Positions 2 to 7,532 of a stretch of 64,000 bases of DNA are shown one piece after another (the stretch's first letter is position 1; every line of letters starts with the position of its first letter). The position numbers were made by a program, and so were the translations under genes. The DNA comes from Tenuifilaceae bacterium CYCD (lineage in GTDB: Bacteria; Bacteroidota; Bacteroidia; Bacteroidales; Tenuifilaceae). The notes below the pieces were generated by a model. The model had not been told where the DNA came from. It was given only the letters and a program-made list of their open reading frames with translations, and did no database searches. The DNA is taken from NCBI GenBank assembly GCA_036322835.1, contig AP027304.1:3844001-3908000 (forward strand), in the 5' to 3' direction.

Positions 2-781
2 AAGCAATACGATAGTCTTGTTTACGAGCATGCCAAAGCTCTTTATAGCCTTATACAAATAAAAGGCATTCCTCAAGTTCCCATGTTTGAGGGACAACTG
101 CTTCCTGCCGATGTAATTCGCCATCATTTTGCGCTAAGGAATCAGCTAAAGTACTGCTCTAAAAGTGGAATTGATATTACTGTTGAGCCATATTGCAGGA
201 TGGCGTTTAACAAGTACGATCTAGAGCCGCTTTTGGTTGATGCCGTGTTCTGTGGTAATATTTCACCAAATTTTGTTGCAATGTGCATGGAGCATAGCGA
301 GTTGGATAGCGCTAGGCAATTAGGCTCTTTAGAGGTGTATATCGATTTCAATACTAAGACACTTATTTATAATTACCCCAAATACAGTATTGAAACGGTG
401 GACAAGTATAGGAACTATTTGGGTTTGGAATCGTTGAGAGATGCAGTACGAAAAAATTATGAAATAGCGTTGTACTATAATCAAACGACATATCCTTTTG
501 ATGAGCATTTACGCCGTTTCAAGGAGATTGGCTATACCAAAAGCAATTATACTAGATTGAGTAAGGAGGAGCAGAATAAACTTTTCTTTGAATCAATAGA
601 CATAACTCAGAAGATAAGGAAGACCTTTTTTGATAAAGGGATAAATATATATCCGAATGGTGATTCTAAGCCCATTTATATTGAGAGCAAGGCGAGGAGG
701 GTTACGTTCCTGTGGAGGAGTGTGGAACGTATTCCCGTGAAACAGGTTTTGTTGCAAACCCCGAACGCGTTGCAGAGTTAA
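2..781 (+). pseudogene. 5'-truncated paralogue of the gws-locus partner protein, 3' end run into a SPASM-gene remnant
   Basis: The frame is open from base 2 with no start in the window, so the gene begins outside; the first internal Met is at 83. The protein aligns by eye with the secreted protein at 1647-2813: both have a G(F/I)P segment, an L-R-H-(F/H)-F stretch, a (R/E)PYC motif, a conserved VYIDFN/TYIDLN-like strand and a later Y/K-R-x-x-x-GL segment. From about base 685 the reading frame runs through the out-of-frame tail of a SPASM maturase gene, so the last ~30 residues are probably not native. The function of this family is unknown. Its place in the tandem cassette (partner protein followed by maturase) argues that it is the left-hand copy of the same locus, shortened by deletion. 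It could still be expressed as a chimeric C-terminus. Confidence 0.6.
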
Positions 782-804
782 ACGCCCAAATTTGGGGTGT
801 GTGA
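688..804 (+). pseudogene. Remnant of a GwsS (SPASM maturase) C-terminus
   Basis: In the frame starting at 688 the bases encode 38 residues ending EECGTYSRETGFVANPERV then AELNAQIWGV and a stop at 802-804. They match the last 38 residues of the intact maturase at 3989-5095 almost residue for residue. An in-frame TGA lies immediately upstream (682-684), so nothing translates this piece; it is read in another frame by the preceding ORF. It marks where the ATP-grasp gene and most of the SPASM gene of a left-hand cassette were deleted. Confidence 0.85.
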
Positions 805-822
805 TATAAATTGTTACTTTAG
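791..822 (+). promoter_or_regulatory. Predicted Bacteroidota-type promoter at the cassette junction
   Basis: TTTG at 791-794, a 20-nt spacer and TACTTTAG at 815-822 match the Bacteroidota -33/-7 pattern (TTTG, TAnnTTTG) with one mismatch. The -33 element lies in the final Ile-Trp-Gly codons of the SPASM remnant. It would drive the HTH gene at 977 with a ~150-nt leader. Confidence 0.55.
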
Positions 823-976
823 TTCTTCAAAATTACTAAAATGCTTTCATTTTGTTATCAAATTTATATTAGTCACACGTCACCAGTCACTTGTCACTTT
901 TCTTCCAAGAATAGGTAACAATTATCGCTTCATTCCTATTAAACACAAAAATCATTATCTAAAATTTGTGTTTAGT

Positions 977-1267
977 ATGAATATTGTTGAATCAAAAAGA
1001 CTTATCGATTATCTTGATTTTCTTTTACAGCAGGGCAATGCAGGAACTGCACCCGAAATTGCCGATAAACTTGGAGTTAGTGAACGCACCGTGATGTCGT
1101 ACTTTAAGCAGCTGAGTGAAATTAAGGTTCCAGTTATTTACAATTTTGCACGCCGAACTTGGAAGTATTCTCGCCCTGGCAGGTTAACTCTTTGTTTTAT
1201 TGATGACGAATCCAATACCCAAAATATCGACACCCCAAACTTACCCCCCTCCATAAATATGCTATAA
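977..1267 (+). CDS. Small HTH transcriptional regulator of the grasp-with-spasm locus
   Basis: A 96-residue protein whose first 60 residues form a winged-helix-like HTH: a helix (VESKRLIDYLDFLLQ), then PEIADKLGVSERTVMSYFKQL, the usual helix-turn-helix spacing. The ATG at 977 is chosen over the open frame from 797, because the upstream 60 codons translate the conserved non-coding junction repeat and give no plausible protein. It lies upstream of the precursor gene and behind a predicted promoter, so a local regulator of the peptide locus is likely. A truncated copy lacking the ATG lies at 5268-5399. The HTH call is firm; the regulatory target is inferred from position. Confidence 0.75.
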   Translation: MNIVESKRLIDYLDFLLQQGNAGTAPEIADKLGVSERTVMSYFKQLSEIKVPVIYNFARRTWKYSRPGRLTLCFIDDESNTQNIDTPNLPPSINML

Positions 1268-1282
1268 AACATAAAATTATTT

Positions 1283-1311
1283 ACAGGTCGGAAGTGTGGT
1301 TGCCGACCTGT
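1283..1311 (+). terminator. Hairpin between HTH gene and precursor gene
   Basis: ACAGGTCGG and CCGACCTGT form a perfect 9-bp stem with an 11-nt loop just after the HTH stop codon. The T-tract behind it is poor, so it may attenuate or protect the 3' end rather than terminate fully. Confidence 0.45.
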
Positions 1312-1395
1312 CGGTTTACTTTGTATTAACCAATCCATTAAAATAAACTGCGCAGGATGGATTGTGTTTATTATTAACTTTAAAAACTAATTAAA

Positions 1396-1587
1396 ATGAA
1401 AACATTAAATGAAAATCTTTTTGGCAATTTTAAACTCCAAAAAAATGAGATGAAATCCCTAAAGGGAGGAACTGTGGTGATCGCAACTTCAGGTAAACAT
1501 GGTAACGGTATGTGTGTTAATGATACACATACATTTTATGATAATGGCACTAGCCGATTTGAGTGGGTTTACACTCAATGTAAGTAA
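1396..1587 (+). CDS. Grasp-with-spasm RiPP precursor peptide (GG-leader)
   Basis: A 63-residue peptide with a charged, Asn/Lys-rich leader ending MKSLKGG (Gly24-Gly25), the pattern of the GG-Bacteroidales natural-product precursors (TIGR04149-type). Cleavage after GG would leave a 38-residue core rich in Thr, Ser, Asp and Asn with two cysteines (Cys40, Cys62) and a THTFYDNGTSRFEW segment. Thr/Ser hydroxyls facing Asp/Glu carboxylates are what an ATP-grasp ester- or amide-forming maturase would join. The gene lies directly upstream of the maturase genes. A strong hairpin follows it, which would favour excess precursor transcript. No C39 peptidase or exporter is visible in the window, so processing would depend on genes to the left or elsewhere. 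Confidence 0.8.
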   Translation: MKTLNENLFGNFKLQKNEMKSLKGGTVVIATSGKHGNGMCVNDTHTFYDNGTSRFEWVYTQCK

Positions 1588-1602
1588 ACGTTGAAAAATA
1601 AT

Positions 1603-1633
1603 TTAAGTTGTGCTTCAAAGAAGCACAACTTAA
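1603..1633 (+). terminator. Strong hairpin after the precursor gene
   Basis: TTAAGTTGTGCTT and AAGCACAACTTAA form a perfect 13-bp stem around a 5-nt loop, with no T-run after it. Placed between precursor and maturase genes, it probably acts as a partial terminator or 3' stabiliser. Confidence 0.6.
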
Positions 1634-1646
1634 TAAAACCTAATAT

Positions 1647-2813
1647 ATGAAAAGAGCGCAATTATTAATTTTGATATGTTTTTTTGTTTTTAATGCTTTT
1701 GGTCAATCCAAAATGAATTTTATTAATTATCATAATCCAGTCAATAAAATTGAAATTTTTGTTCGGAAGCAACTATATTCGGAAGCAATTTCTATGTATG
1801 AACAATTACAAAAGGAATATCCGCGCTTTTTTTACAAGGATTTGCACAATTTGAGTATCTGCTACTTAAAGGTTGAAAAATTAGACAGCGCAATTAGTAT
1901 TGCTCGCCGATTGGTTCTGCAAGGCTACACTTTGGATGATTTTTATAAATACAATGAGTATAATTGTATTACTAATAACCCCTTGTGGGGTAATTTTTTA
2001 GCCACCTATCCTAGATTACGTTTTGAATACGAAAAGACGATTGATCATACATTCGTTGATATGGTTAATAGGGCTATAGTATTCGACCAGCAGTATCAGG
2101 ATAGTAGCGATGCAAAACGAGATTCTGTTTACTACTATCAGGGAGTAATGCTATTCGATTATATGTTTAAGTATGGTTTCCCAAATTTCTACTTAAACAG
2201 AGAAAATGTGCTTGGGAATCGTTTGATGGCAATGCTTAGGCATTTTTTCTATATACCACAGATTTTAGAGAATGACCCAGACTTATCTTTTACGAGGCCA
2301 TACTGCAATATGGTTGTTGAAAAAGAATATAATGAATTTCTGCATTCGGCAATAGTTATGGGTAAATTACTACCTTCTACCTATATTGAGATAGTTTACC
2401 GTTTTGATAGTAGTCCCTACGGTCTTTTAGGGGTTACTTATGATTTTGATAGAGAAATTACTTATATCGATTTAAATTTAAATAATAGTTTCTCCATTCA
2501 GAATATCAATGAAAAGCGGAGGTCTATAGGCTTGTTTGAGATAGACACTCTATCAACAGGCAATATTGAAGGAACGTGGTACAGTCAGGTTTCAGTTAAA
2601 GTTATGAAAGAGGCTATGCTTAATTGTGATACTTGCCACACTGTTTTGGATTATTTTGATATTGCAAGACCAATTAGAGAGAAAATACAATTTTCTTATG
2701 AAAATAAAGAATTGAGGGACTTTATATTTAATTATGATCCATCTAATCTCAAATACGAACAATTGAAGAATTCTACAAAATATATGAAAAATTTAAAAAA
2801 GAAACAGTATTAA
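1647..2813 (+). CDS. Secreted partner protein of the grasp-with-spasm locus, unknown function
   Basis: 388 residues with a signal peptide (MKRAQLLILICFFVFNAFGQ, 1-20). Residues ~30-100 look like two TPR-like helical hairpins (AISMYEQLQKEYPRF, LSICYLKVEKLDSAISIAR). From ~130 on comes a domain with DQQYQDSSDAKRD, a KYGFPNF turn and RPYCNM that weakly recalls DUF6624-type sequences. A paralogue lies at the left window edge in the same position relative to a SPASM gene, so the protein appears to be a standing member of the cassette. The role is unknown; an envelope factor acting on, exporting or giving tolerance to the mature peptide is inference from position only. It starts 60 bp behind the precursor hairpin and ends 32 bp before the ATP-grasp gene. 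Confidence 0.65.
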   Translation: MKRAQLLILICFFVFNAFGQSKMNFINYHNPVNKIEIFVRKQLYSEAISMYEQLQKEYPRFFYKDLHNLSICYLKVEKLDSAISIARRLVLQGYTLDDFYKYNEYNCITNNPLWGNFLATYPRLRFEYEKTIDHTFVDMVNRAIVFDQQYQDSSDAKRDSVYYYQGVMLFDYMFKYGFPNFYLNRENVLGNRLMAMLRHFFYIPQILENDPDLSFTRPYCNMVVEKEYNEFLHSAIVMGKLLPSTYIEIVYRFDSSPYGLLGVTYDFDREITYIDLNLNNSFSIQNINEKRRSIGLFEIDTLSTGNIEGTWYSQVSVKVMKEAMLNCDTCHTVLDYFDIARPIREKIQFSYENKELRDFIFNYDPSNLKYEQLKNSTKYMKNLKKKQY

Positions 2814-2845
2814 ATCGTTAATCATACCAAATCATTCTGCCGTAA

Positions 2846-3832
2846 ATGATATTAATTTTAAGTGAGACATTAGATATTACCACGGATAGGGTAATTGATT
2901 GGTTGCATAGTTTCGGCTATAAAGATGTGTTAAGAATTAACGAGGGGACGCCTATCTATGTAAAACACATAAGTATTGGTTCCACAAAAAGTGAGATAAT
3001 TCTTTGTGCAAACAATCGTGTTTTTAATATTGAGGAAGTCTGTTTTTATTGGTATAGGAGGGGACTTTTTTCTTTTGATATTTTACCATCAATAGACTTA
3101 GAGTTAAATTCAAATCTTGATAAGTTATTGTGGTTTCATAAAAACGAGTGGTATCCAATAAGAAATTACATAATTAATAAATTTGAGTTAAAACCACATA
3201 TTGGAAATTTACACAAATCAATTAGCAATAAGATAATCAACCTAGAAATAGCAAGGGCGTGTGGTTTAAAAATACCCCAAACTAGTATTTCTAATTATTC
3301 TGAGATATTAAGACAACAGATGTTGGATTCAAAAGAGTATATTTGTAAGCCTGTTAGTGAATTTATTGATTTTGTTGATACGGACTATGAGTATAGCACT
3401 TTTACTCGTAAACTTAGTACTGAGGAATTACTTGAACCCTCTCATTATTCTTCACCTCAATTAATACAAGAGTACATTGATAAATGGATAGAATTAAGGG
3501 TGTTTATTTTGAAAGATAAGGTTTTTTCTATGGCAATTTTTTCGCAAAAATACCAAGATACTAGTGTCGATTTTAGAGCAGGGGATTTAGATTCCCAATA
3601 TAGAGTTGCTCCTTTTGAATTACCAGATGAAATTACCCAAAAGTTGTTACAATTTATGAGTAATGCTGGTTTAGATAATGGTTCCTTAGATTTAATACTA
3701 ACTAATGATGGAGAATATATTTTCCTTGAAGTAAACCCAATTGGTATAATTGATATGGTTTCGAAACCATGTAATTACCATATTGAAAGAGAAATAGCTT
3801 TGCAAATAATTCAATCAATAGATGAAGCATAA
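2846..3832 (+). CDS. gwsG: ATP-grasp peptide maturase of the grasp-with-spasm system
   Basis: 328 residues with the ATP-grasp layout: an N-terminal domain with the FYWYRRG motif (~67-73), the central NKxxNLxxARxxGLxIP segment (~128-144), a nucleotide-binding lysine in YICKPVSEF (Lys168), and Mg2+ ligands in SLDLILTNDGEYIFLEVNP (Asp282, Glu295, Asn297). This matches the GwsG-type maturases (TIGR04192-like), relatives of the graspetide ligases that form side-chain ester or amide bonds on a precursor using ATP. Neighbours fix the assignment: GG-leader precursor upstream, SPASM protein downstream. The catalytic residues are present, so it should be active. Substrate and ring pattern cannot be read from the sequence. 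Confidence 0.88.
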   Translation: MILILSETLDITTDRVIDWLHSFGYKDVLRINEGTPIYVKHISIGSTKSEIILCANNRVFNIEEVCFYWYRRGLFSFDILPSIDLELNSNLDKLLWFHKNEWYPIRNYIINKFELKPHIGNLHKSISNKIINLEIARACGLKIPQTSISNYSEILRQQMLDSKEYICKPVSEFIDFVDTDYEYSTFTRKLSTEELLEPSHYSSPQLIQEYIDKWIELRVFILKDKVFSMAIFSQKYQDTSVDFRAGDLDSQYRVAPFELPDEITQKLLQFMSNAGLDNGSLDLILTNDGEYIFLEVNPIGIIDMVSKPCNYHIEREIALQIIQSIDEA

Positions 3833-3988
3833 TTGTAATAAGATAAATCAACCGTCTCTCTGCTTGAAAAGGACTGAGGTTATAAAAGGTCAGGATATTA
3901 TTCCTGTATTTATTAACTGTAAAAGGGTGCAAAATCCTAAAAGATTTTTAATTTCTCATAATCGAATTATTTCTACTATTTTCTAAAT

Positions 3989-5095
3989 ATGAGTAATCTT
4001 CAAAAGTCAAAACATTATTCAAAGTTTGCTAATTGTATTGCTGTGAAAGGCTATTTGCGTGGAATAGTTATGGATCTTCAGCGAAAACAATATTTATTTG
4101 TGCCTATTAATACAATAGGAGTTTTGGAGAAGAAATCTTTTTGTGCAGATGAATTTAGCCCAGAATATAACAAGTTTATAGACTATTTAGAACAAAATGA
4201 AATTATCTTTCCAATAAATAAAAAGAATGTAGATTGTTTTCCATTTTTCAATATGGATTTCCTAACACCATCAATTATTGATAATTCAATAATTGATGCT
4301 GATGAGTTAACTCTAAATGATGTTTTTTTATTTATTAATCAATTAGATACGCTATTATGTAATTCGGTGCAATTCAGGTTTTATAGTAAGCCTGAGAAAT
4401 ATTGTTTGTTATCTATATTAGATGCAATTAATGCAAGTTCAATTGAATCTGTGGAGATATTAATGCCAGAGGTAGAGTGGTTAAATGATTCAGCTCTAAA
4501 GGAGTTTGCTTTTAATAATAAAAAATTAACATCATTATTTTTTCATTCAGCAAAGATGGATAATAAAAATTATTACAATCAAACAACGGTAACAAGGTTT
4601 GTTCAGCCAATAAAATCGTTTCAAAATTGTGGGAATGTTAAACTTGGTTATTTTTATGTTGATATAGGATTAACTACATTGTCTTATTCTTATAACACTT
4701 GCCTTTTCAAAAAAATATCCATCGATACCCATGGCAACATTAAAAACTGCCCATCCTGTTCCCAGTCATTCGGAAATATAAAAAATACCACCTTAAAGCA
4801 AGCCTTTGAGCATCCCGATTTTAAAAAGTTATGGAGTATAACAAAAGACCAAGTTGATGTTTGCAAGGACTGTGAGTTTCGCCATATGTGTACCGATTGC
4901 CGTGTTTACATAAAAGACCCCGAGAATATTTATTCTCAGCCATCCAAATGTACCTACAACCCATACATTGCCAAATGGCAAGGAGAAGATGGGTATGTCC
5001 CTGTTGAGGAGTGTGGCACTTACTCCCGTGAAAAAGGTTTTGTTGTAAACCATGAACGAGTTGCTGAACTAAACGATCAAATTTGGGGTGAGTGA
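3989..5095 (+). CDS. gwsS: SPASM-domain peptide maturase of the grasp-with-spasm system
   Basis: 368 residues. The C-terminal third is a SPASM domain with cysteines at 238, 254, 257, 292, 295, 301, 304 and 321, enough for two auxiliary [4Fe-4S] clusters. The N-terminal part has no CxxxCxxC motif, so it is a SPASM protein without the radical SAM cluster, as described for GwsS-type (TIGR04193-like) proteins. It may deliver or position the precursor, or do unknown chemistry. The gene starts 156 bp after the ATP-grasp gene. Its last 38 codons lie in the junction repeat, and the final Ile-Trp-Gly codons overlap the -33 element of a predicted promoter. Function beyond peptide maturation is not established. 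Confidence 0.85.
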   Translation: MSNLQKSKHYSKFANCIAVKGYLRGIVMDLQRKQYLFVPINTIGVLEKKSFCADEFSPEYNKFIDYLEQNEIIFPINKKNVDCFPFFNMDFLTPSIIDNSIIDADELTLNDVFLFINQLDTLLCNSVQFRFYSKPEKYCLLSILDAINASSIESVEILMPEVEWLNDSALKEFAFNNKKLTSLFFHSAKMDNKNYYNQTTVTRFVQPIKSFQNCGNVKLGYFYVDIGLTTLSYSYNTCLFKKISIDTHGNIKNCPSCSQSFGNIKNTTLKQAFEHPDFKKLWSITKDQVDVCKDCEFRHMCTDCRVYIKDPENIYSQPSKCTYNPYIAKWQGEDGYVPVEECGTYSREKGFVVNHERVAELNDQIWGE

Positions 5096-5393
5096 TATAA
5101 ATTGTTACTTTAGTTCTTCAAAATTACTAAAATGCTTTCATTTTGTTATCAAATTTATATTAGTCACACGTCACCAGTCACTTGTCACTTTTCTTCCAAG
5201 AATAGGTAACAATTATCGCTTCATTCCTATTCAACATCAAAATCATTATCTAAAATTTGTGTTTAGTGTTAATTTTGTTGAATTCGAACGACTTATCGAG
5301 TATCTCGATTTTCTTTTACAAAGTGGAAATGCAGGAACAGTCCCCAAAATAACCAATAAACTAGGAGTCAGTGATCATACTGTACTATATTGT
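4979..5393 (+). repeat. Cassette-junction direct repeat, copy B
   Basis: Partner of 688-1102. The non-coding part from 5088 to ~5240 is nearly identical to 798-950, while the HTH-coding part has diverged and decayed. Two such direct repeats flanking a whole cassette allow loss or gain of that cassette by homologous recombination. Confidence 0.9.
5082..5113 (+). promoter_or_regulatory. Predicted promoter overlapping the end of gwsS
   Basis: TTTG at 5082-5085 inside the last gwsS codons, 20-nt spacer, TACTTTAG at 5106-5113; the same arrangement as at 791-822. Here it would transcribe only the HTH remnant and possibly the secreted-protein gene at 5446. Confidence 0.5.
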
Positions 5394-5399
5394 ATTTAA
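5268..5399 (+). pseudogene. Truncated HTH regulator copy
   Basis: Residues align with the first ~43 residues of the HTH protein at 977-1267 (FERLIEYLDFLLQSGNAGT, NKLGVSDHTV). The start ATG has become GTT at 5268-5270 and the frame stops at 5397-5399, within the second HTH helix. It marks a further cassette whose body is missing. Confidence 0.8.
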
Positions 5400-5930
5400 G
5401 ATGATTTTTAAATTAACTATTTTTATACATCAGAAAATGACTATAATGAGATTTTCTTCTTTTACATCAAAAAGCATTTCATGTTTTGTATTTATATGTT
5501 TCTTTTTTCCCTTTACAAATAATTTACTTGCTCAAGACACTCTGATGTTGAAAGCCAAAAATACTATTGTGGGAAATTGGGTTATGGAAAATAACCCTCA
5601 ATACCGTTTACAATTCAATAAGAATGGCACCTTTAAAGAGTTTATAAATGATAGTACGGAGATTTTTGATTCCTCACGAAGCAATAAATACTATATTCTT
5701 TGTGAAAATGATACTCTATGGCTGTACTTGAAGCGGTATAACTGTATAATTAATGATAAAAAAAAGAGGACGTATATAGAGAAAAGGATGATAAAGTTTG
5801 AAAATAATCAAATTACAATGATTACATATAAGATGCGTAAGGGAGTTACTAATCATATAGATGAATATGCAATATGGAAAAGACAAGAAACAGAAATAAG
5901 TAAATCAACTCATCCAAAATTAAGTTATAT

Positions 5931-6925
5931 GCATATCCGCTAATGTACCAAAATAATTATCTTTACAAAAACACTTGAGATGAATTTTATCGATTTTGTA
6001 AAGAAATATCCAGATGAAGCCAGCTGCATAAGACACTTTCGAACCGTTAAGGAGCGAAAAGGAGTCGTCTGCAAGAAGTGTGGCAATACGCATCATTACT
6101 GGAACAAAACCTACAATTCGCACGATTGCAGCAGCTGTGGATACAGAACCACCTTACGAAGCGGCACCGTTATGGAGTCATCGAAGCTACCTTTTCAGTA
6201 CTGGTTGTACGCCATTTACCTGATGACCATGACCAAAAAAGGGATCTCTGCTGCTGAGGTTCAGCGGCAGCTTGGCCATAAGCGCTACGAACCGATTTGG
6301 GCCATGATGCACAAGATCAGATCGGTCATGGGATTGCGCGATGAGCGGTATGAATTGGAGGGCGTTGTCGAGCTGGACGATGCCTTTTTCAGAACCCATG
6401 CAGAGGACGAAAATGACGAGCTGACCAAAAGAGGAAGAGGCAGTCAGCGGCAAAGCAAAGTTCTAGTTATGGCCAAAGTTGATCCCAGGCGGGGGCGACC
6501 TCGCAGGAACAAAAAGCCATCAGCATTCCGATACGTAAAGATGGTTGTCATTCCGGACTCTTCGTCGAAAACGATGAACAAAGTAGTCTCAGCGAGCACC
6601 AGCTCTTCATCGGTGATTAAGAGTGATGGCTGGCGTGGTTTTAACAAAATCAAAGAGATAAGCTCCAGACATATCAAAAAGATAGTACCACCCGAGGAGG
6701 CTTCAAGAGTACTCCCATGGGTGCATACCATGATTAGCAATGCAAAGAGAAACTTCTTAGGAGTCAATCACAAAATAAAAGACGTGTACCTGCAAAACTA
6801 TCTGGACGAGTTTTGTTATAAAACCAATCGAAGATATTTTGGCAAAGAGTTGTTTGAACGACTTATGGTTGCTGCTGTAGAAGATACTTGGTATGGTAAA
6901 ATAAGGTATAATTGCGGATAATCAT
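5931..6925 (+). mobile_element. IS1595-family insertion sequence
   Basis: A ~995-bp element with one transposase gene. Imperfect terminal inverted repeats contain ATCCGC at both ends (left 5933-5949, right 6905-6921 in reverse). The flanks carry an identical 12-bp direct repeat ATTAAGTTATAT at 5919-5930 and 6926-6937, read as the target duplication. Twelve bp is longer than the ~8 bp usually given for this family, so part of the match may be chance. Exact ends could shift by a few bases because the outer TIR bases differ. Confidence 0.85.
5980..6921 (+). CDS. IS1595-family transposase
   Basis: 313 residues, full length for the family. An N-terminal zinc ribbon (Cys31, Cys34, Cys50, Cys53) precedes a recognition segment, then the catalytic core: ELDDAFF (Asp133 or Asp134), KSDGWRGF (Asp216) and the third residue in the MISNAKRNF region (Asn254), followed by the conserved YLDEFCYKTNRR segment. 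All catalytic positions are present and there is no frameshift, so it should be active. The stop codon lies inside the right terminal repeat. Higher GC than the flanking gws genes fits a recent arrival. Confidence 0.9.
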   Translation: MNFIDFVKKYPDEASCIRHFRTVKERKGVVCKKCGNTHHYWNKTYNSHDCSSCGYRTTLRSGTVMESSKLPFQYWLYAIYLMTMTKKGISAAEVQRQLGHKRYEPIWAMMHKIRSVMGLRDERYELEGVVELDDAFFRTHAEDENDELTKRGRGSQRQSKVLVMAKVDPRRGRPRRNKKPSAFRYVKMVVIPDSSSKTMNKVVSASTSSSSVIKSDGWRGFNKIKEISSRHIKKIVPPEEASRVLPWVHTMISNAKRNFLGVNHKIKDVYLQNYLDEFCYKTNRRYFGKELFERLMVAAVEDTWYGKIRYNCG

Positions 6926-7532
6926 ATTAAGTTATATTATACCCTCTGGATTTGAAGGGACAATATGGATTGCTTTTAATCAACCTAATGGTATTAACCC
7001 AGTATTAGATAGTTTGGGAAATGCTATTATAGAAATACCCAATAATGGATTGCTGCAGACAACTATGAAAGAGAATGCGCTTGCTACTGCTAACAAGAAT
7101 TATAGGATACTTGAGAGATTAGAAAAAAACATATTCAAAGAATACAAGACCTTTGATAAATTCGATAAATACGATTCAACTTATTTCGGGTTGGAAGATA
7201 CTATAGCCATAATGTGTGGATTTAATCAGACACCAAGAGAGGACATAAATAGAATATTTGGAAAAAAAGTTGAAGGAAATGTAATGACAATATACATAGG
7301 GAAATATCCAGAAGAAAGAAAACAGGGCTATCCTTGGTCTAATAATTTCTAGAAATCCCCGTTCGGTTTAGTTCCTGCCTGAGTTGTTTTGTTATTGCAG
7401 GCTTAGGCTGCTTCCAGCACAAATTAACTTAATCAAATTTTATTTAAGAACTGCCAGAAATGCTCAATAACAAGCAAAATAAAGGGCACAAATAACTATC
7501 CGGCAACGCCATTTCAAAATTTGGATCACAGG

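What the first reader, a model, noticed from the sequence alone, without database searches (positions are those of the whole stretch)
688..5399. Grasp-with-spasm RiPP locus built from tandem cassettes joined by a conserved repeat
A ~415-bp block (SPASM tail, non-coding spacer, HTH start) occurs on both sides of a complete cassette: HTH, GG-leader precursor, secreted partner, ATP-grasp, SPASM. The spacer is better conserved than the coding flanks. Seen directly: the two blocks and the cassette order. Inferred: the block is a recombination joint that lets whole peptide cassettes, each with its own precursor, be gained, swapped or deleted, like a small modular peptide factory.
Basis: partly seen in the sequence, partly recalled or inferred. 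Interest (0 to 1): 0.8.

Follow-up and report, generated by a model that had tools for sequence, protein, structure and literature searches.

The report
Swappable bacterial peptide cassettes with scars
A Bacteroidales genome carries peptide-making gene cassettes whose two ends are shared, near-identical DNA; the conserved 'spacer' is the scar of a cut-off exporter gene, and relatives show the same ends framing quite different peptide-making enzymes, so whole cassettes seem to be swapped like modules.

Summary
The repeat is real: window 687-1100 vs 4978-5391, ungapped, SPASM tail 82%, spacer 98.3%, HTH start 74%, flanks at chance; it is the window's strongest repeat. A third full copy lies 51 kb away on the other strand. 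Cassette and family (TIGR04192/TIGR04193) are right. Three corrections. (1) The spacer's first ~47 bp are the SPASM-to-transporter gap plus the first codons of the C39-peptidase ABC exporter gene: in a congener the same cassette runs into the whole exporter and HlyD; here the exporter is cut at codon 4 and fused to the next cassette's upstream region. (2) The block's left edge (687-697) is a deletion junction in an upstream cassette, not a boundary. (3) Neighbouring cassettes are broken; one complete, exporter-less cassette remains. HTHs cluster by genome, while the cassette interior is 97-99% identical to a congener whose flanking genes are 66-81%, at another site. Best reading: payload exchange between a resident regulator cap and an exporter start. 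Recombination itself is inferred.

The parts
2..697 (+). 3' part of a second partner (TPR-like secreted protein) gene, remnant of a 'B' cassette; starts upstream of the window (L034 17538)
   Evidence: 97.8% nt identical to L033 13221-12525, the intact B-cassette partner
687..697 (+). deletion junction: partner gene jumps into SPASM tail; ATP-grasp and most of SPASM (about 2.2 kb in L033) missing; shared GCAAGGSGAGG at both ends
687..804 (+). SPASM maturase tail remnant (38 codons, own stop at 802-804), out of frame with the partner ORF
   Evidence: 93.4% nt to SPASM_B tail of L033
805..851 (+). exporter-start scar: SPASM-to-transporter gap plus ATGCTTTCATT (841-851), first codons (MLSF) of the C39-ABC transporter
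   Evidence: aligned with G002, G001, G024 and L033 transporter starts
852..976 (+). rest of joint: upstream region of the next HTH, with GTCAC-type repeats
   Evidence: near-identical joint at 5143-5267 and L033 9236-9063; 3' part shared with U0/U1
977..1267 (+). HTH regulator (96 aa, HTH_11)
   Evidence: Pfam PF08279 1e-07
1283..1311 (+). inverted repeat ACAGGTCGG-11nt-CCGACCTGT between HTH and precursor (operator or RNA hairpin)
   Evidence: kept as ACAACCCTG..CAGGGTTGT in U1; counts
1315..1353 (+). promoter-like leader TTTACTTTGTATTAACCAATCCATTAAAATAAACTGCGC, found only three times in the genome, each in front of a precursor
1396..1587 (+). GG-leader precursor peptide (63 aa)
   Evidence: TIGR04149 19.3 bits, below its 25-bit cut-off; homologue in G002
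1647..2813 (+). secreted partner protein, weak TPR matches
2846..3832 (+). ATP-grasp peptide maturase
   Evidence: TIGR04192 252 bits, cut-off 230
3822..3986 (+). small ORF in the position of the LPL-type proteins described for these loci
   Evidence: position and motif resemblance only; PMC8939145
3989..5095 (+). SPASM-domain peptide maturase
   Evidence: TIGR04193 250.5 bits, cut-off 175
5096..5142 (+). second exporter-start scar (ATG at 5132)
   Evidence: as 805-851
5143..5267 (+). second copy of the joint / HTH upstream region
5268..5387 (+). truncated second HTH gene (about 40 codons), closest to U1's HTH

Best explanation
This is part of an array of RiPP (graspetide-type) payload cassettes that are exchanged between two constant ends. 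The left constant end is an HTH regulator plus its promoter leader; the right one is the SPASM 3' end running into the start of the C39-ABC exporter gene. Payloads (precursor plus maturases) come and go between these ends by recombination in the shared sequence, and tandem insertion leaves a joint in which an exporter start is fused to the next HTH cap. In this genome the joint was made once, cut at exporter codon 4, and copied to three places. The window cassette is an orphan that must export through the single intact exporter at 3.789 Mb, if it is expressed at all. Shown: the shared ends, the exporter-start scar, deletions, different payloads between like ends, the same cassette at different sites in two species. 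Inferred: homologous recombination as the agent, the direction of each event, use of the distant exporter in trans, peptide chemistry and biological role.
For: Joint in three copies in the genome, two of them in the window, one 51 kb off on the other strand beside a second SPASM gene. First 47 bp of the spacer align with SPASM-to-exporter junctions of G002, G001 and G024 up to ATGCTTTCATT, then all three joints break at the same base. In G002 the same cassette runs on into the whole exporter and HlyD. Border repeats with unlike contents: G017 663 bp 95%, G007 517 bp 88%, Perlabentimonas 637 bp 93% (HTH side); G023 329 bp 97%, G015 344 bp 96%, Brumimicrobium 949 bp 82% (exporter side). HTH genes are most alike within a genome (G000 87-91% among complete copies, G017 96%, G007 95%; G000 W vs G002 80%) although ATP-grasp to SPASM is 97-99% identical between G000 and G002. 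Flanking genes of the two species are 66-81% identical, and the site of each species' cassette is empty in the other as far as fetched. Only one C39-ABC exporter of this type in the genome.
Against: No recombination event was observed. ClpB is 96% identical between G000 and G002, so background divergence is uneven and transfer of the cassette, though likely, rests on few flanking genes. High conservation of the SPASM C-terminal domain and of the leader can also reflect function; the C-terminal tree neither rejects nor supports a within-genome grouping. Several fragments in drafts lie at contig ends and were not counted. The arrays are visibly decaying, so part of the pattern may be duplication followed by loss.
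Confidence: 0.66

Rival explanations
1. Plain tandem duplication and decay: an operon ending in the exporter was duplicated, copies then eroded; the shared ends are just what is left and have no role in exchange.
For: Internal deletions at 687-697 and in the U1 cassette, truncated second HTH, IS1595 at the right end.
Against: Payloads between like borders are unrelated, not diverged copies; the joint is 98% identical while both coding flanks have lost half of their fourfold sites; the third copy is 51 kb away and inverted; the cassette interior matches another species far better than its border does.
Confidence: 0.2
2. The spacer is conserved because it works, as a promoter, terminator or small RNA for the HTH, and not because of recent copying.
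For: It lies in front of the HTH start; the exporter-side part is 92% conserved in G002 and G001.
Against: The 3' half of the 110-bp core occurs in no relative and not in the U0/U1 caps of the same locus; no Rfam match; complete identity over 136 bp is more than regulatory sites usually need.
Confidence: 0.1
3. The spacer is a small mobile element (MITE-like) inserted at the cassette border.
For: Near-identical copies with diverged flanks; an IS1595 copy is close by.
Against: Only three copies in 3.9 Mb; its first half is exporter sequence; no terminal inverted repeats or target duplication seen.
Confidence: 0.04

Closest known systems
Grasp-with-spasm graspetide loci (TIGR04192/TIGR04193; ATP-grasp branch 5 of PMC8939145)
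   Same: ATP-grasp, SPASM, small ORF before SPASM, GG-leader precursor, C39-ABC exporter and HlyD; precursor diversity, duplication and horizontal exchange already reported for graspetide loci
   Different: That paper, in the passages read, describes no cassette-border repeats, exporter-start scars or exporter-less orphan cassettes, nor exchange of the graspetide payload for radical-SAM or VKOR payloads between the same ends
Pneumococcal blp bacteriocin locus (PMC4517551, PMC6422914)
   Same: Constant genes at both ends, variable bacteriocin region between, signs of recombination, broken exporters with export through a homologous exporter
   Different: Gram-positive class II bacteriocins under a two-component system; no maturase sets are exchanged and no tandem joints made from exporter starts are described in the passages read
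Polymorphic toxin loci with standalone toxin cassettes (PMC3482391)
   Same: Constant delivery part, exchangeable payload, remnants of displaced cassettes nearby
   Different: Payload is a protein domain fused to the carrier, not an operon of precursor and maturases

Membership tests
grasp-with-spasm RiPP system | ATP-grasp maturase TIGR04192 over cut-off | tested here: met
   252 vs 230 bits
grasp-with-spasm RiPP system | SPASM maturase TIGR04193 over cut-off | tested here: met
   250.5 vs 175 bits
grasp-with-spasm RiPP system | GG-leader precursor upstream (TIGR04149-like) | tested here: inconclusive
   19.3 bits, cut-off 25; KGG motif present and close homologue in G002
grasp-with-spasm RiPP system | adjacent C39-ABC exporter and HlyD (frequent, not required by the two family models) | tested here: not met
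   only four codons remain at each joint; exporter present once elsewhere in the genome
grasp-with-spasm RiPP system | ester/amide cross-links and SPASM-made bonds in the product | not testable with these tools
   needs chemistry
exchange locus of the blp / polymorphic-toxin kind (works like) | constant ends, variable contents in different genomes | tested here: met
exchange locus of the blp / polymorphic-toxin kind (works like) | strain-level exchange at the borders | not tested
   one genome per species held

The most novel reading that the evidence does not exclude
A general exchange system for peptide natural products in Bacteroidota: one resident regulator-promoter cap and one exporter start serve as landing ends for payloads of different chemistry (graspetide, radical-SAM, VKOR/thioredoxin), and displaced payloads are kept as exporter-less orphan cassettes that use the resident exporter in trans.
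Probability: 0.38. Interest if true: 0.75.

Novelty: new variant of a known kind. Interest (0 to 1): 0.6.

Why it matters
It would explain why closely related graspetide ATP-grasp enzymes sit beside unrelated precursors, gives a sequence mark (cap, SPASM tail, exporter start) for finding orphan peptide cassettes that normal mining may discard as lacking an exporter, and makes payload exchange in Bacteroidota directly testable by strain comparison or by an engineered swap in a laboratory strain.

Tried and rejected
Rfam search of leader and spacer: nothing relevant. Spacer as a multicopy repeat: only three full copies; weaker matches share the common GTCACTTGTCACT motif. Plasmids as vehicle: only 25-30% identical SPASM genes on three plasmids. 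Separate trees of the SPASM N- and C-terminal parts: the N-part rejects grouping W, G002 and B (p 0.0002), the C-part neither rejects nor supports it, so this is suggestive only, since the C-domain is also slower. Border fragments at contig ends (G018 C359, one in G003 C49) were left out of the count. Literature searches for such a border in RiPP loci found none, but the library lacks most subscription papers.

Full report
OBSERVATION. The two blocks align without a gap at an offset of 4291 bases. Identity is 82% in the SPASM tail (687-803), 98.3% in the spacer (804-976, only three differences, at 941, 946 and 947) and 74% in the HTH start (977-1100); outside, it falls to the chance level of 31%. 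It is the strongest repeat of the 64-kb window. Fourfold-degenerate sites of the two coding flanks agree at 14 of 28 positions, so the spacer is far better kept than silent sites next to it. The cassette order and the family names are right.

WHAT THE LEFT EDGE IS. The window opens inside a gene (2-697) that is 97.8% identical to the partner gene of a second grasp-with-spasm locus 51 kb away (L033, genome 3784000-3803000, opposite strand). At 687-697 it jumps into the SPASM tail, which is 93% identical to the tail of that locus's SPASM gene. Both parent sequences share GCAAGGSGAGG at this point. Further upstream lies another cap with precursor and partner whose ATP-grasp stops after about 42 bases (U1, L034 15454-17519), and a remnant of a cap (U0, L034 14782-14869). 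The window therefore holds one complete cassette in a row of damaged ones.

WHAT THE SPACER IS. In the congener G002 (contig JAKQKB010000178.1) the same cassette is followed by the complete C39-peptidase ABC exporter and HlyD. Aligning the junctions shows that the first part of the spacer is the SPASM-to-exporter gap plus the first exporter codons, ATGCTTTCATT, after which the window sequence leaves the exporter and enters the upstream region of the next HTH. All three joints of this genome (window 805, window 5096, and L033 9236) break at the same base, so they descend from one event and were copied. The genome has a single exporter of this type, at 3788814-3789023 in the second locus; the window cassette has none of its own.

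WHAT LIES BETWEEN SUCH BORDERS ELSEWHERE. HTH-side repeats: G017, 663 bp at 95%, enclosing a precursor and a broken 271-aa-type gene; G007, 517 bp at 88%, enclosing a small peptide, a 274-aa and an 878-aa protein, and followed by a radical-SAM pair and an outer-membrane protein before the exporter; Perlabentimonas gracilis (L065, same contig as G021 C63), 637 bp at 93%, enclosing precursor, partner, ATP-grasp, small ORF and SPASM and followed by a VKOR-type payload. Exporter-side repeats: G023, 329 bp at 97%, SPASM tail into exporter start, behind a different SPASM maturase in one copy and behind grasp-with-spasm in the other; G015, 344 bp at 96%, exporter N-terminus (109 codons) behind a radical-SAM gene and again, complete, behind a partner gene; Brumimicrobium (Flavobacteriales), 949 bp at 82%. 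G011 has a 161-bp repeat next to an exporter fragment. SPASM tails without the rest of the gene stand in front of exporters behind other maturases in G003, G008 and G023, and shorter ones in G001 and G024. Counting genomes with a case not at a contig end: G000, G001, G003, G007, G008, G011, G015, G017, G021, G023 and G024, that is 11 of the 27 family members held (Perlabentimonas is placed in Tenuifilaceae). Pfam assigns payload genes: radical SAM, S41 peptidase, VKOR, thioredoxin, outer-membrane barrel.

BORDER FOLLOWS HOST, PAYLOAD DOES NOT. ATP-grasp, small ORF and SPASM of the window are 97-99% identical in DNA to G002, whereas the HTH is 78-80% and the second half of the partner gene 71-82%. 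HTH genes are most alike within a genome: G000 87-91% between complete copies, G017 96%, G007 95%. The two ATP-grasp proteins of this genome share only 42%, the SPASM proteins 49%, with 28% in the first 240 residues and 88% in the last 128. Genes flanking the cassettes are 66-81% identical between G000 and G002, although ClpB is 96%. The G002 site lies, in G000, between 2.819 and 2.856 Mb and holds no cassette detectable by translated search; the fetched G002 regions matching the two G000 sites hold none either. The simplest reading is recent transfer of a payload between species and its placement behind a resident cap.

REGULATORY LEADER. Between HTH and precursor lies an inverted repeat followed by TTTACTTTGTATTAACCAATCCATTAAAATAAACTGCGC, which occurs exactly three times in the genome, each time before a precursor. 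Across nine copies the repeat keeps its pairing through one set of paired changes (8 cells, 0 of 500 shuffles), which U1 and B share, so it counts as one event. An operator of the HTH or an RNA hairpin are both possible.

MECHANISM AND LIMITS. Best supported: cassettes are exchanged or inserted by recombination in the shared cap and in the SPASM-tail/exporter-start, leaving joints of the kind seen here, and unused ones decay. This resembles the pneumococcal blp locus (constant ends, variable contents, broken exporters with export in trans; PMC4517551, PMC6422914) and polymorphic-toxin loci (PMC3482391), but here the payload is a whole enzyme set. No event was witnessed, strain-level data are missing, and the product is unknown. 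The family itself is known (PMC8939145: duplication and horizontal exchange, unexplained precursor variety); the border anatomy and exporter scars appear not to have been described there, in the passages read.

Noticed in passing
window 5371-7352: An IS1595-family element (transposase 5980-6921) interrupts a secreted-protein ORF: the reading frame before it (5371-5943) and after it (6912-7352) seem to be one gene, with TTAAGTTATAT on both sides of the element.
   Followed up: partly
L065 7766-9282, L092 3489-3798, L155 2165-2930: Exporter (C39) N-terminal fragments between cassettes carry three different short inserts of 21-30 bases, each a hairpin (e.g. CCCCGATTAATCGGGG), shared by several copies in two genomes.
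   Followed up: partly
window 1283-1353: Inverted repeat plus strongly conserved promoter-like leader in front of precursors, nearly unchanged between genera (97-99% to G017 while ClpB is 76%).
   Followed up: partly
L033 2736-2776 and window 861-901: GTCACACGTCACCAGTCACTTGTCACTT-type motif of the spacer also precedes a four-helix-bundle gene placed between exporter and HlyD.
   Followed up: no
L034 14974-15331: Imperfect non-coding tandem repeats (offsets of about 126 and 210 bases) between the U0 remnant and the U1 cap.
   Followed up: no
L034 5842-8430: ClpB is 96% identical to G002 whereas most other compared genes are 66-81%, so ClpB itself may have been exchanged.
   Followed up: no
window 1647-2813 vs G002 L084 8970-10127: Partner gene is a mosaic: first part 93-99% identical to G002, second part 71-82%, then 97-99% again from ATP-grasp on.
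   Followed up: partly
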